From NCBI GenBank assembly GCA_017617295.1, contig JAFZWN010000021.1, forward strand, positions 1 through 64,000: 64,000 nucleotides of DNA, read 5' to 3'. The position numbers were made by a program, and so were the translations under genes. The stretch is from Clostridiales bacterium. GTDB lineage: Bacteria > Bacillota > Clostridia > Saccharofermentanales > Saccharofermentanaceae. A model generated the notes under the pieces. The model was given only the letters and a program-made list of their open reading frames with translations, was not told the origin of the DNA and made no database searches. Below, one piece after another: positions 1 through 4,418 of this stretch (position 1 is its first letter; every line of letters starts with the position of its first letter).

Positions 1-1493
1 GGTCGCTGGATGACCATGCATTTTATAACTGTAGAAATCTTAGGAATGTGATACTTCCTGAAAGTATATATCAAATAGGAGATTATGCATTTTCTGGTTG
101 TACAAGTTTAAATTCTGTAGTAATGAGTAACTATGATTATTACAATAAAGCATTTCCGAGTTGGGATGAATATTCAAGCATTTTTCATTATTATTATACT
201 ATTTCGTATATAACAAACGGAGAGGGAACTGTTAGTGGAAAAAGAAAAACATATGGTACAGATGAATTTGAATTGATTGTTACCCCAGAAAATTATTATG
301 GCATTGACAGTGTTATATGGGATAACGGATTTAGAACCGTTGTACTGTACCCAAATGATGAAGGCTTGTATACAATGCCTGATTCTGATGTTGCCGCAAC
401 TTTAAATGTATCAATTAGTCATTCACATACTGTAGTTAGTGATCCTGCTATTGCGCCTGATTGCATACACATTGGATTGACCGAAGGAAGCCATTGTTCG
501 ATTTGCGGTGAAGTAATAGTTCCTCAATATTCTGTTCCTGCGACAGGACATACTCCTGTAATTGATCCTGCAGTGGCAGCGACGACTGCCGCAACAGGTC
601 TTACAGAAGGAAGTCATTGCTCGGTATGTGGAGAGATTATAGTTGCTCAAAGTGTTATACCCACTATCACAACCACAAACAACACCACTACCGCCCCGAC
701 TCCAGCAACTCCGACTCAATCTACATCGGCAAATACACCTTATAGTACTGGATCAGGGGTTTCCGGTTTTGTTGAGAGACTTTATACAGTAGCTTTAGGA
801 AGAAGTTCCGATCCTGTTGGACAACAGCAGTGGGTTAATACTATTACATCAGGGCAGAATACCGGTGCGGATGTAGCTAGGGGATTTCTTTATAGTCCTG
901 AGTTTATTAACAAGAATTGTACTAATGAAGAATTTGTCAGGATTCTATATCGCACTTTCTTTGGGCGAGAAGCAGATGTAAACGGATTAAATGCATGGGT
1001 TGGGGTGCTTTACCAGGGTGATAGCAGACAAAACGTCATTGAAGGATTTATTAATTCTACTGAATGGGCAAATCTCTGCCTATCATATGGTATTTCTTCC
1101 GGTGGAACCGGGTCACCGTCTGTTGATGTAGAGCCTAACCAAGCCACAGTAGATTTTGCCACTAGGCTTTATACAACTTGTCTTAATAGAAACGCTGATC
1201 CGAGTGGACTTATGGCATGGGCTCGTCAATTAGCTAATCAGAGAGAAACCGGAACTGGAGCTGCCAGAGGTTTTTTCTTCAGCGAAGAGTTTATAAGACA
1301 AAATATAAGTAATGAAGAATATGTAGCCCGATTGTACAGAACATTTATGGGAAGAGAACCTGATGTGATTGGGTTTAATGCTTGGGTGAGCCAGCTGTAT
1401 AGCGGAATATCCAGAGAAGAAGTCTTCAATGGGTTCGCTCAATCTCAGGAGTTCACACAGATCTGTGCCCAGTACGGGATCGTGAGAGGGTGA
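1..1493 (+). CDS. Large surface protein with BspA-like LRR and two DUF4214 repeats (5' end outside window)
   Basis: The reading frame is open from base 3, so the gene starts before the window. The GTG at 48 is an internal codon: the residues before and after it read as one leucine-rich repeat of the BspA (LRR_5) type (...AFYNCRNLRNVILPE...). After it come a beta-rich linker, two copies of a Cys-containing motif (GLTEGSHCSICGE, then GLTEGSHCSVCGE), a Thr/Pro-rich spacer, and two DUF4214 repeats of about 110 residues each (motifs FVERLYTVALGR and FATRLYTTCLNR). DUF4214 is common in extracellular and S-layer-type proteins. The layout indicates an exported adhesion or surface protein; no sortase signal is present at the C-terminus. 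The DNA is more AT-rich than the housekeeping genes downstream, as is the next gene. Function beyond surface location is unknown. Confidence 0.85.
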   Translation, partial: SLDDHAFYNCRNLRNVILPESIYQIGDYAFSGCTSLNSVVMSNYDYYNKAFPSWDEYSSIFHYYYTISYITNGEGTVSGKRKTYGTDEFELIVTPENYYGIDSVIWDNGFRTVVLYPNDEGLYTMPDSDVAATLNVSISHSHTVVSDPAIAPDCIHIGLTEGSHCSICGEVIVPQYSVPATGHTPVIDPAVAATTAATGLTEGSHCSVCGEIIVAQSVIPTITTTNNTTTAPTPATPTQSTSANTPYSTGSGVSGFVERLYTVALGRSSDPVGQQQWVNTITSGQNTGADVARGFLYSPEFINKNCTNEEFVRILYRTFFGREADVNGLNAWVGVLYQGDSRQNVIEGFINSTEWANLCLSYGISSGGTGSPSVDVEPNQATVDFATRLYTTCLNRNADPSGLMAWARQLANQRETGTGAARGFFFSEEFIRQNISNEEYVARLYRTFMGREPDVIGFNAWVSQLYSGISREEVFNGFAQSQEFTQICAQYGIVRG

Positions 1494-1539: not shown

Positions 1540-2211
1540 ATGACTGCTAATGATGTAAAAATTGTACCTGATCTCAGTACCGTTGACATCAAAGATTGTA
1601 TAAAAAGATTTGAAGCAGAGAATCAAACAAGTGAGGTAGCTGTTAGTTCTGTGTTTTCACGATATAACAAGAATATAGAGTTATCGGAAATTCTTATAAA
1701 AGTTATTGTTATAAATAGTTGTTATAATGCAAGACTTAACAATAATCATACAAGTAACGATACAGAAAATGTCAATCTTCCCGTGGATGTTTATACCATA
1801 TCAGATCATTTTTTCAGACGACGTGAAGAAATTGCCAAGTATGTTGAAGATAAGGATAAAATTAGTTTGATAGAGAATCTTAAAAAGGTTGGCGATGAAT
1901 ATAAAATAGCGTACTCGTTTGTTACCAAATACTTTTATTGGGAATATCAGGATATGGACATTTATATGGTTGATCGCTATGTAAAAGGAGTTTTGTATTA
2001 CTATAACAAGCAAATCCAATATACTGAGAAATTTACTCAAAAGGATCTGGATAACTATACAGTGTTTTGTAGTGCTTACGATGCTTTTTTCTCAGCACTC
2101 CATAAGGTGAATAACTACGTGTTTAAAAGCACAAGAGAAAAGGACATATTTCTTTGGATGTTCGCTAAGGATCTGGAAAAGAAAAAACATATAAAAATCA
2201 CATATGAATAA
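1540..2211 (+). CDS. Conserved-looking hypothetical protein, AT-rich
   Basis: A 223-residue protein with an excellent ribosome site (AAGGAGG, 1527-1533) before the ATG, 46 bp behind the DUF4214 gene and so probably co-transcribed. It has no signal peptide or membrane segment and is predicted largely helical. A stretch near residue 125 (SFVTKYFYWEYQDMDIYMVD) recalls a motif of the form S-F-A-T-K-Y-x-x-W-x-x-P that I associate with uncharacterised cytosolic proteins sometimes found near defence genes, but I cannot name the family. Its low GC content suggests it and the upstream gene arrived together. A terminator follows at 2248. Confidence 0.7.
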   Translation: MTANDVKIVPDLSTVDIKDCIKRFEAENQTSEVAVSSVFSRYNKNIELSEILIKVIVINSCYNARLNNNHTSNDTENVNLPVDVYTISDHFFRRREEIAKYVEDKDKISLIENLKKVGDEYKIAYSFVTKYFYWEYQDMDIYMVDRYVKGVLYYYNKQIQYTEKFTQKDLDNYTVFCSAYDAFFSALHKVNNYVFKSTREKDIFLWMFAKDLEKKKHIKITYE

Positions 2212-2247
2212 TCGACAACAAGATATTGTTAATAAGATTAAAAGCCG

Positions 2248-2281
2248 GTCGGCAGATTAGAAATGGTCTGCCGACTTTTTT
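2248..2281 (+). terminator. Rho-independent terminator after the 1540 gene
   Basis: Perfect 9-bp stem GTCGGCAGA / TCTGCCGAC (2248-2256 and 2267-2275) with a 10-nt loop and six T residues at once after it. It ends the DUF4214 / hypothetical transcript. Confidence 0.9.
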
Positions 2282-2340
2282 CTGCAGGGAAGGAAAACCG
2301 GAGTTCCTCATGACGGAACAGCCGATTAAGAATAACAACT

Positions 2341-2471
2341 ACCGACCGGCTTAATTCCGTTTATCAGATCCGCAGGCGCTGTCAAGTCCCAAGCCGCTTC
2401 GCGGTGCCCCGTGGGCAGACTTGACAGAAGGAGCCTGCCGGATCTGTAAGATCAGCGATAAGCCGGCCGGT
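2341..2471. other. Nested inverted repeat, candidate structured RNA or palindromic element
   Basis: Three concentric stems are visible. The outer stem pairs 2341-2353 with 2459-2471 (12 of 13 pairs). The middle stem pairs 2365-2377 with 2433-2446 (13 pairs, one bulged base). The inner stem CTGTCAAGTC / GACTTGACAG pairs 2379-2388 with 2418-2427 perfectly. At the tip are two small GC hairpins, CCGC-TTC-GCGG (2394-2404) and GCCC-CGT-GGGC (2406-2416). There is no open reading frame of note and no T-run at either end, so it is not a simple terminator. It may be a non-coding RNA, part of the 5' region of a longer transcript, or a palindromic repeat element. No second copy is in this window. Confidence 0.6.
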
Positions 2472-2519
2472 GAACAGAATTGATCTGCCGTTTCGTGATG
2501 CCTATGTTGAAAGAACGAT

Positions 2520-2651
2520 TTCAACCTTTTTTGCGAAAAATCCAAAAAAGGTTGAAGTCGGGGGTACGGACTGACCAAAAAGGTTGAATTACGTTTTGAA
2601 AATGCTTCAAAAGGTTGAAATTACCTTTCGATATAGAACAAAAAGGTTGAA
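2520..2651 (+). repeat. Phased array of GGTTGAA boxes preceded by A-tracts
   Basis: GGTTGAA occurs at 2550, 2582, 2613 and 2645, so the starts are 32, 31 and 32 bp apart, about three helical turns each. Every copy has four to six A residues before it. A fifth box in reverse orientation (TTCAACC, 2520-2526) lies 30 bp before the first and makes a perfect 14-bp inverted repeat with it (2520-2533 against 2543-2556, 9-nt spacer). The array ends two bases before an extended -10 promoter element. The boxes lie on one face of the helix and look like sites for a multimeric DNA-binding protein or intrinsically bent DNA upstream of the rpmF promoter. Confidence 0.75.
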
Positions 2652-2652
2652 A

Positions 2653-2661
2653 TGATATAAT
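2653..2661 (+). promoter_or_regulatory. Extended -10 promoter for rpmF
   Basis: TGATATAAT matches a perfect extended -10 (TGnTATAAT). The position expected for a -35 hexamer holds no good TTGACA and falls within the last spacing of the GGTTGAA array, which suggests an activator or the extended -10 substitutes for it. It gives a leader of about 160 nt before rpmF at 2829. Confidence 0.65.
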
Positions 2662-2828
2662 GGTGCTGCCGAGATCTTTCCGGGATGCATTTTCGATTCG
2701 AAGATGCAGTCCAGTTAATTCGGAGAAACAGGCAAAAAAGTCCTTGCAAAAAGGATAAACATAATGTACAATCGTAAAGCATTATGCGAGAAACGGATTA
2801 ACCCTACAGTAGATGGAGGTGAAGATAT

Positions 2829-3014
2829 ATGGCACATCCTAAGAGAAAGTGGTCGAAGGCAAGGACTTCCCGCCACAGAAGCGCATGGAAGCTTGCGACA
2901 CCCGGTTTTGTTGAGTGCCCGCAGTGTCATTCCAAGATGCTTCGCCGCAAAGTTTGCAAGAATTGCGGTTATCTTGACGGCAAGCAGGTCATAGCGATCG
3001 GCGAAGAAGTTTGA
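2829..3014 (+). CDS. rpmF: 50S ribosomal protein L32
   Basis: A 61-residue basic protein beginning MAHPKRKWSKARTSRHRSAWK, as in bacterial L32. It carries a complete four-cysteine zinc ribbon (CPQC...CKNC), so it is the zinc-binding (C+) form rather than the C- paralogue made under zinc starvation. The ribosome site GGAGGTG sits 7 bases before the ATG. It is transcribed alone: a strong terminator follows at 3041. The usual upstream partner (DUF177/YceD) is missing and replaced by non-coding DNA. Confidence 0.98.
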   Translation: MAHPKRKWSKARTSRHRSAWKLATPGFVECPQCHSKMLRRKVCKNCGYLDGKQVIAIGEEV

Positions 3015-3040
3015 CCCGAATTTAAAGCAGGCTTAAGACA

Positions 3041-3070
3041 GGGTGGTGTTTAATGGCACCACCCTTTTTT
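3041..3070 (+). terminator. Terminator after rpmF
   Basis: Perfect 8-bp stem GGGTGGTG / CACCACCC with an 8-nt loop, followed by TTTTTT. It separates rpmF from der, 23 bp before the der start codon. Confidence 0.92.
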
Positions 3071-3092
3071 ACTGATTTTTGGAGAATAAGAG

Positions 3093-4418
3093 ATGAGCAA
3101 ACCCGTAGTAGCTATAGTCGGAAGACCCAATGTCGGAAAGTCTTCGCTCTTTAACGCCCTTTACGGCGAGAGGATATCGATCGTACACGATACCCCCGGC
3201 GTAACACGTGACCGTATCTATGCCACCGCCAAGTGGAGAGAGCGGGAGTTTGTAATGATCGATACCGGCGGTATCGAGCCTTCCACGAGCGATGTCATAT
3301 TGAAGGGCATGAGGCTTCAGGCCGAGATCGCGATCGAGACGGCCGATGTCATCGTTTTCATGTGCGATATCAAGGCGGGCATGACGGCGGCCGATGAGGA
3401 GATAGCCGTAATGCTCCAGAAGAGCAAGAAGCCCATAGTCCTTTGCGTTAACAAGGTGGACTATGTAGGTGATCCGCCTGCCGAGATGTATGAGTTCTAT
3501 AATCTCGGTATCGGCGATGTAGTTCCGATCTCCGCCGCACACAGGCTCGGGATAGGCGATCTTCTCGATACCGTTTTCGAGCATTTCCCCGATCCAACTG
3601 AGAACGAGGAGGAGGAAGGCATAATCAGGGTCGCACTGATAGGAAGACCTAATGCGGGCAAATCTTCTCTTACGAATACTCTTGCCGGAAGCGACAGATC
3701 GATAGTATCCGATATAGCAGGCACGACCAGGGATGCCGTTGACGTTCAGATAGAGAATAAATACGGCAAGTTCGTGATAGTCGATACCGCAGGTATGCGA
3801 AAGAAGAGCCGCATCGAGGATGTCATCGAGAAATATTCGATGGTAAGGGCTCTGTCCGCGATAGACAATGCCTCTGTATGCGTCATCCTTATAGATGCCA
3901 CGGTGGGCGTTACCGAGCAGGATACAAGGGTCGCGGGTCTCGCGCACGATGCCGGAAAGGCATGTATCTTTGCGATCAACAAGTGGGATCTGGTCGATAA
4001 GCAGACCGGAACCCTCGAAGCAATGACGAAGATCATAAGAGACAGGTTTGCCTTTATGGATTATGCTCCGGTCGTATTCATCTCGGCAAAGACAGGACAG
4101 AGGACGGACAGGCTCTGGGAGAAGATCGTCTCCGTTCACGAGCAGGCTGGGAGAAGGCTTACGACGGGCGTATTTAACGATATGCTCAATGAGGCTGTCG
4201 CGATGGTACCGACTCCCCAGGATAAGGGCAGGCACTTAAAGATCTATTACGGAACGCAGGTGTCGAGCTTCCCGCCCACATTCGCGCTCTTCGTAAATGA
4301 CAAGGAACTGTCCCATTTCTCCTATGAACGTTATATCGAGAACCAGATCAGGAAGAACTTCGGCTTTGAAGGGACCCCTATAAGGATATATATGCGTAAT
4401 AAGAAAGGCGATAACTGA
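3093..4418 (+). CDS. der: Ribosome biogenesis GTPase Der (EngA)
   Basis: A 441-residue protein with the two tandem GTPase domains diagnostic of Der, which acts in maturation of the 50S subunit in the cytoplasm. The first P-loop GRPNVGKS is at residues 10-17, with DTGG at 57-60 and NKVD at 120-123. The second P-loop GRPNAGKS is at 184-191, with DTAG and NKWD following. A C-terminal KH-like domain ends in a basic tail (MRNKKGDN). The length is usual for the family. The ribosome site GGAG lies 8 bases before the ATG. It probably has its own promoter in the short gap after the rpmF terminator, or is read through from it. Confidence 0.98.
   Translation: MSKPVVAIVGRPNVGKSSLFNALYGERISIVHDTPGVTRDRIYATAKWREREFVMIDTGGIEPSTSDVILKGMRLQAEIAIETADVIVFMCDIKAGMTAADEEIAVMLQKSKKPIVLCVNKVDYVGDPPAEMYEFYNLGIGDVVPISAAHRLGIGDLLDTVFEHFPDPTENEEEEGIIRVALIGRPNAGKSSLTNTLAGSDRSIVSDIAGTTRDAVDVQIENKYGKFVIVDTAGMRKKSRIEDVIEKYSMVRALSAIDNASVCVILIDATVGVTEQDTRVAGLAHDAGKACIFAINKWDLVDKQTGTLEAMTKIIRDRFAFMDYAPVVFISAKTGQRTDRLWEKIVSVHEQAGRRLTTGVFNDMLNEAVAMVPTPQDKGRHLKIYYGTQVSSFPPTFALFVNDKELSHFSYERYIENQIRKNFGFEGTPIRIYMRNKKGDN

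What the first reader, a model, noticed from the sequence alone, without database searches (positions are those of the whole stretch)
2520..2661. Helically phased GGTTGAA boxes before the rpmF promoter
Four direct copies at 32, 31 and 32 bp and one inverted copy 30 bp upstream all lie on the same face of DNA, each with an A-tract, and end beside an extended -10 with no good -35. This is too regular to be chance and does not match a regulator I know. It could be a cooperative repressor/activator array tuned to ribosome supply, or designed curvature.
Basis: seen in the sequence. Interest (0 to 1): 0.58.

Follow-up and report, generated by a model that had tools for sequence, protein, structure and literature searches.

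The report
Dispersed intergenic box array, helically phased
The repeated GGTTGAA boxes before a ribosomal protein gene are real, but they are one copy of a scattered family of intergenic repeat arrays rather than that gene's own switch; in this bacterium and its relatives such arrays use different box sequences yet tend to keep the boxes whole turns of the DNA helix apart.

Summary
In detail: AAAAAGGTTGAA lies inverted at 2520-2531 and direct at 2545, 2577, 2608 and 2640 (32, 31, 32 bp). The rpmF-specific reading fails. The array sits between a terminator (2247-2276) and the true rpmF promoter (2744-2772). That promoter was found in 29 of 30 rpmF loci by pattern, the 30th by eye. None of the 29 relative loci has an array. 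The genome holds seven more arrays of the same box class, one between convergent genes, with partly homologous spacers. Arrays with other boxes (TTTCGTTGTA and more) share the layout. A ~135-bp covarying palindrome (2340-2473) precedes the window array; 12 of 16 such palindromes in the genome are flanked by box arrays, and the box differs between loci. The same occurs in some relatives. Box distances cluster at whole helical turns whatever the box, also in stretches not picked by any box search (relatives: 12 of 19 within 1.5 bp of n x 10.5, 5.4 expected, p=0.0005; own: 10 of 14, 4.0 expected, p=0.0005). Best reading: a STAR-like but distinct composite intergenic repeat whose boxes are protein sites on one DNA face. 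Binding protein and function are inferred and unidentified.

The parts
2247..2276 (+). intrinsic-terminator-like hairpin after the upstream ORF (1540-2211)
2340..2473 (+). imperfect palindrome module; 16 places in the genome, covarying arms; usually next to a box array
   Evidence: this copy was one of the three used to build model R2
2520..2531 (-). inverted box AAAAAGGTTGAA (first element of the array, forms an 18-bp-arm dyad with the next box)
2545..2556 (+). direct box 1 AAAAAGGTTGAA
2577..2588 (+). direct box 2 AAAAAGGTTGAA (+32)
2608..2619 (+). direct box 3 CAAAAGGTTGAA (+31)
2640..2651 (+). direct box 4 AAAAAGGTTGAA (+32)
2653..2661 (+). extended -10-like TGATATAAT after the last box; no -35; not the promoter that relatives conserve
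   Evidence: (sequence)
2744..2772 (+). conserved rpmF promoter TTGCAA-N17-TACAAT, 56 bp before the ATG
2829..3014 (+). rpmF (ribosomal protein L32), next gene downstream

Best explanation
The array is one copy of a dispersed, modular intergenic element of this bacterium. The element has a palindrome module and, beside it, an array of short identical boxes. In this copy the box is AAAAAGGTTGAA, with one inverted copy and then four direct copies. Shown: copies of the array elsewhere in the genome with partly homologous spacers; absence from the rpmF loci of relatives; the same layout with other box sequences; covarying palindrome arms; boxes kept near whole helical turns apart across arrays with unrelated boxes, also in relatives. 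Inferred: the boxes are sites for sequence-specific DNA-binding protein(s) that sit side by side on one face of the double helix. That would explain why boxes stay identical within an array while spacers drift, and why spacing is quantised by the turn. The element spread by copying or mobilisation into gaps between genes. It is not a switch for rpmF in particular. Which protein binds, and whether it is a transposase-like mobiliser or a chromosome-organising or regulatory protein, is not known; I rank mobiliser first.
For: Own genome: exact box arrays on contigs C30, C33, C47, C88 (window), C154; model R1 built from six arrays also finds C104 (E 6.5e-8) and C7:150-210 (E 1.9e-5), which were not in its training set. 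Six-array alignment with shared spacers, e.g. GTATGGTTTTGAAATCTT in C30 and C47. Boxes 94-100% identical within four arrays, spacers 30-48%. Same layout with TTTCGTTGTA at C93 and C34. C30 array lies between convergent genes, C7:19 kb between divergent ones. Palindrome R2: 16 places in the genome; one row per element, 88.1% of cells paired and 27 of 41 pairs with a change on both sides, slid controls 21-36% paired. 12 of 16 own palindromes have on at least one side a 300-bp flank whose local repeat count no shuffle of 200 reaches; 5 of 12 in relatives. Helical quantisation: relatives' stretches not chosen by any box or palindrome search, 12 of 19 arrays within 1.5 bp of n x 10.5 (5.4 expected, p=0.0005); own random stretches without the window array, 10 of 14 (4.0 expected, p=0.0005); holds over nine threshold settings, one array per box sequence.
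Against: No binding protein was identified. No exact empty site could be compared, because no relative read keeps the same neighbours, so insertion as a unit is not shown; target duplications were looked for by eye only and none was consistent. Three distance clusters (about 31, 52, 62 bp) carry much of the phasing signal and could in part be inherited layouts. Best-fit period is 9.9-10.1 in pooled data rather than 10.5. Unrelated bacteria and archaea show a weak trend too (p 0.03-0.21 by setting). 4 of 16 own palindromes have no flank that passes the array test. Only 9 of 82 other same-genus genomes have a palindrome at E up to 0.001. Where flanking genes run in tandem, GGTTG/CGTTG arrays are oriented with them in 8 of 8 cases (by eye), which a promoter-linked role would also predict.
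Confidence: 0.7

Rival explanations
1. The array is a non-autonomous mobile element (MITE/REPIN-like): inverted first box and last direct box act as ends, internal boxes as transposase sites. This is compatible with the best explanation and is its mobiliser branch.
For: Dispersed homologous copies; outer boxes of the window array form perfect 14-bp inverted repeats (I2); a hairpin-forming palindrome module sits beside it.
Against: No transposase gene was sought genome-wide; no consistent target duplication seen; arrays of one box class follow palindromes at only some loci; number of boxes varies between loci.
Confidence: 0.35
2. A cooperative repressor or activator array that controls rpmF (ribosome supply).
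For: Array ends 93 bp upstream of the rpmF promoter and is oriented with the gene; direct repeats bound by regulators are well known (VirR boxes, seen only in a search listing, PMC2838878; RptR, passages of PMC12255303).
Against: 0 of 29 relative rpmF loci have such an array though they keep the promoter; same array class at seven other places by unrelated genes.
Confidence: 0.06
3. Designed DNA curvature from phased A-tracts.
For: A-tracts in 11 arrays tend to be in phase at 10.5 bp (R 0.42-0.85); one array (C45) is more curved than all 300 shuffles.
Against: Wedge model (parameters recalled): window array no more curved than shuffles (111 of 300 at least as curved); C34 is straighter than most (294 of 300 at least as curved).
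Confidence: 0.06
4. An RNA or single-strand hairpin element: box and inverted box pair, and pairing keeps the boxes identical.
For: Inverted box and box 1 form a long stem, fold z -3.98; box changes are mirrored in both arms between classes (by eye).
Against: Runs of four direct boxes lack partners; spacing in whole helical turns is a property of double-stranded DNA; the array lies after a terminator and before the promoter, so it is probably little transcribed (inference).
Confidence: 0.1
5. Neutral minisatellite: tandem duplication of ~32-bp units without selection.
For: Some arrays have near-identical units, e.g. C34, C104, C8.
Against: In the window and three other arrays boxes are 94-100% identical but spacers 30-48%; quantised distances across unrelated boxes.
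Confidence: 0.08

Closest known systems
STAR elements of Staphylococcus aureus (PMC3532100, passages read)
   Same: Interspersed intergenic arrays of short direct repeats with recurring spacers; dispersal mechanism and function unknown; spacers locus-specific.
   Different: STAR: one GC-rich 14-bp motif, at least 40 bp between motifs. Here: AT-rich boxes, about 20 bp between them, an inverted first copy, many different box sequences in one genome, whole-turn spacing, a palindrome module beside the array.
REPINs (PMC3116915, passages read)
   Same: Dispersed extragenic hairpin-forming palindromes with compensatory changes in the arms; tandem clusters.
   Different: REPINs are doublets of one conserved REP sequence tied to RAYT transposases; here the palindrome is joined to arrays of unrelated boxes; RAYT not tested.
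Pneumococcal BOX/RUP/SPRITE and other MITEs (PMC10969869, passages read)
   Same: Modular, clustered intergenic repeats.
   Different: No helical quantisation or locus-specific boxes in the passages read.
TAACTGA direct repeats of Beggiatoaceae (PMC4679880, abstract read)
   Same: Many sets of short direct repeats in intergenic regions.
   Different: One heptamer, mostly just upstream of start codons; here spaced boxes away from start codons, many box types.

Membership tests
rpmF promoter operator | array conserved with the promoter in relatives | tested here: not met
   0 of 29 relative rpmF loci with an array; promoter in 28 of 29 of them by pattern, the last by eye. 30 loci read (own included) of 59 genomes searched.
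STAR element | 14-bp motif T(G/A/T)TGTTG(G/T)GGCCC(C/A) | tested here: not met
   box is AAAAAGGTTGAA, no GGCCC (motif from PMC3532100)
STAR element | at least 40 bp of recurring sequence between motifs | tested here: not met
   19-20 bp between 12-bp boxes
STAR element | interspersed intergenic direct repeats | tested here: met
REPIN | dispersed extragenic hairpin with compensatory arm changes | tested here: met
   for the palindrome module only
REPIN | associated RAYT (Y1) transposase | not tested
   no genome search for Y1 transposases was made
MITE | terminal inverted repeats | tested here: met
   2518-2531 and 2640-2653, 14 nt, 100%
MITE | target site duplication / empty site | tested here: inconclusive
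   no syntenic empty site among loci read; flanks inspected by eye only
CRISPR array | repeats of about 20 bp or more with unique spacers | tested here: not met
   12-bp boxes, spacers homologous between loci; criterion recalled

The most novel reading that the evidence does not exclude
A family-wide class of intergenic elements in which each locus carries its own box sequence but all obey one geometric rule, boxes whole helical turns apart, and many sit beside a covarying palindrome. This would imply either a diversified set of DNA-binding proteins with a common side-by-side assembly, or a mobiliser that builds such arrays, and would be a new type of bacterial repeat defined by geometry rather than by sequence.
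Probability: 0.35. Interest if true: 0.75.

Novelty: new variant of a known kind. Interest (0 to 1): 0.6.

Why it matters
Repeat families in bacteria are normally recognised by shared sequence. Here the box sequence differs from locus to locus while spacing follows the helix, so the class would be missed by usual repeat finders. If confirmed, it points to an unknown DNA-binding system present in at least several species of a genus, and gives a simple test: half-turn insertions between boxes.

Tried and rejected
Curvature: computed and not supported for this copy. Rfam scan of the window: no match at gathering thresholds. Search of public genome and virus collections with a two-box pattern: scattered hits in 117 and 35 stretches; only the 35 viral ones were scored with R1, best 19.6 bits, nothing convincing. 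Relatives with weak R1 hits (12 of 77, at most 22.7 bits): seven were read and none is a GGTTGAA array; one (G079) has an AAAAAGTTGGAA box group. Empty-site comparison through the cation-efflux gene next to the C33 array: relatives have other neighbours and no such array in the eight upstream regions read. A loose fuzzy pattern for the palindrome gave only noise and was replaced by model R2. Idea that the two palindromes in G163 flank a transposase: the gene between them is a DUF4214-type surface protein by eye, not a transposase.

Dropped before counts: arrays that had been found through a spacing filter were left out of the 'own' phasing tests and in part; loci fetched through R1, R2 or box patterns were left out; gaps sharing a 30-mer or a box with an earlier gap were counted once. 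In one search the alignment has 29 rows from 28 loci (one locus has two palindromes).

Full report
Observation. Direct 12-mers start at 2545, 2577, 2608 and 2640, so 32, 31 and 32 bp apart. The inverted copy is 2520-2531. No other noncoding array with 29-35-bp spacing is in the 64-kb window. The extended -10 TGATATAAT follows the last box.

Not the rpmF promoter. All 59 same-genus genomes searched have rpmF; the best 30 loci, own included, were read. TTGCAA-N17-TAnnnT lies 36-108 bp before the start codon in 29 of 30 by pattern, and L212 has TTGCAT-N17-TATAAT by eye. In the window this is 2744-2772, the only promoter-like site found in 2150-3100; a terminator-like hairpin lies at 2247-2276. 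None of the 29 relative loci carries an array. In several relatives a DUF177-type gene precedes rpmF, whereas in the window genome that gene is on another contig (the gene name is recalled).

Copies elsewhere. The exact 12-mer box occurs 19 times in the genome and the reversed (not complemented) control pattern 0 times. Arrays lie on C30, C33, C47, C88 and C154, with a GGTTGTA variant on C7. R1, a sequence-only model of these six, adds C104 and C7:150. In 77 other same-genus genomes the best R1 match is 22.7 bits against 81-99 bits for the six. The spacers are partly homologous between loci, so these are copies of one ancestor and not sites that arose separately.

Context. Neighbouring genes differ: an ABC transporter and a phospholipase-like gene (convergent, C30), a cation-efflux gene (C33), a solute-binding and a rubredoxin-type gene (C47), a sensor kinase and an ABC transporter (C154), a hydrolase and a CPBP-type gene (divergent, C7) (several names by eye). 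In the eight tandem contexts (C88, C33, C47, C154, C104, C7:150, C93, C34) the array points with the genes, 8 of 8. This was counted by eye after the fact.

Other boxes, same layout. TTTCGTTGTA arrays at C93 and C34 also have one inverted copy and then four direct copies at 32 bp. AGGGCATTTT at C45, GTGGTGGTAATC at C114 and a related box at C8 also repeat at 32 bp. Boxes with longer direct distances, often alternating in orientation, include TTTGGTGCAAA, ATATACGGAA, GTATACCAAA and TTTAGTAAAT.

The palindrome. Sequence 2340-2473 is a hairpin-forming palindrome (fold z -5.90 for 2330-2465). Model R2 from three copies (C88, C144, C93) finds 16 places in the genome, 13 of them not used to build it. 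Arms covary: one row per element, 88.1% of cells paired and 27 of 41 pairs with changes on both sides; slid controls pair in 21-36% of cells (the both-strand count is). The alignment was fitted to the model, which favours its structure. In 12 of 16 own copies, and in 5 of 12 copies in relatives, a flank on at least one side has more local repeats than any of 200 shuffles. As a yardstick, 14 of 106 own intergenic gaps of at least 200 bp reach a repeat score of 3, and some of those contain palindromes. The box differs from locus to locus. R2 matches 9 of 82 other same-genus genomes at E up to 0.001, and over the order 7 of 187 others at E up to 0.0001, one of them (G163) in another genus of the family.

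Helical rule. Direct box distances over 30 hand-picked arrays fall near 31.5, 42, 52.5, 63, 73.5, 105 and 115.5 bp, R 0.64 at 10.4-10.5. Because some of those were found by spacing, I repeated this blind: one modal distance per intergenic gap, one gap per box sequence, with loci fetched by any box or palindrome search left out. Relatives: 19 arrays from 321 gaps, 12 within 1.5 bp of a whole number of turns (5.4 expected), p=0.0005. Own random stretches without the window array: 14 arrays from 251 gaps, 10 within 1.5 bp (4.0 expected), p=0.0005. Nine threshold settings agree. Gaps from unrelated bacteria and archaea show a weaker trend, p 0.03-0.21 by setting. Best-fit period in pooled data is 9.9-10.1, a little short of 10.5. 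Much of the signal comes from three clusters at about 31, 52 and 62 bp, so some of it may be inherited layout.

How it may work. Boxes hold at 94-100% identity within four arrays while spacers hold at 30-48%. Together with whole-turn spacing this points to proteins bound side by side on one face of double-stranded DNA (inference). Curvature does not explain it for the window copy. RNA structure explains the first hairpin but not the run of direct copies nor the spacing rule. Dispersal is shown by the copies; the means is not.

Literature. Searches returned STAR elements, REPINs, MITEs, TAACTGA repeats and CRISPR work, and nothing in the listings that describes arrays with locus-specific boxes at whole-turn spacing beside a palindrome. 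The library holds open-licence papers only, so this is a limited statement.

Noticed in passing
window 2340-2473; L013:4640-4880: Palindrome copies; at C154 only the right half is present and the 3' end of the sensor kinase gene is partly duplicated just before it, as if the element and the gene end had recombined.
   Followed up: partly
L014:4150-4680; L233:120-440: On C7, a GGTTG array is directly joined to a second array with a different box (TTTGGTGCAAA; GTGGTACATC), so array types cluster.
   Followed up: partly
L015:4560-4830: On C104 a GGTTGTA array is followed by a CGTTGTA array in the opposite orientation.
   Followed up: partly
window 48-1493; L010:2519-4243; L351:1-357; L431:1940-4939: DUF4214-type surface protein genes lie next to arrays or palindromes at four loci (the last two named by eye); may only reflect a large gene family.
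   Followed up: no
window 1540-2211: 223-aa ORF upstream of the array has no Pfam match.
   Followed up: no
L395:1-465 (C156): ATATACGGAA boxes in a 116-bp tandem unit beside the palindrome.
   Followed up: no
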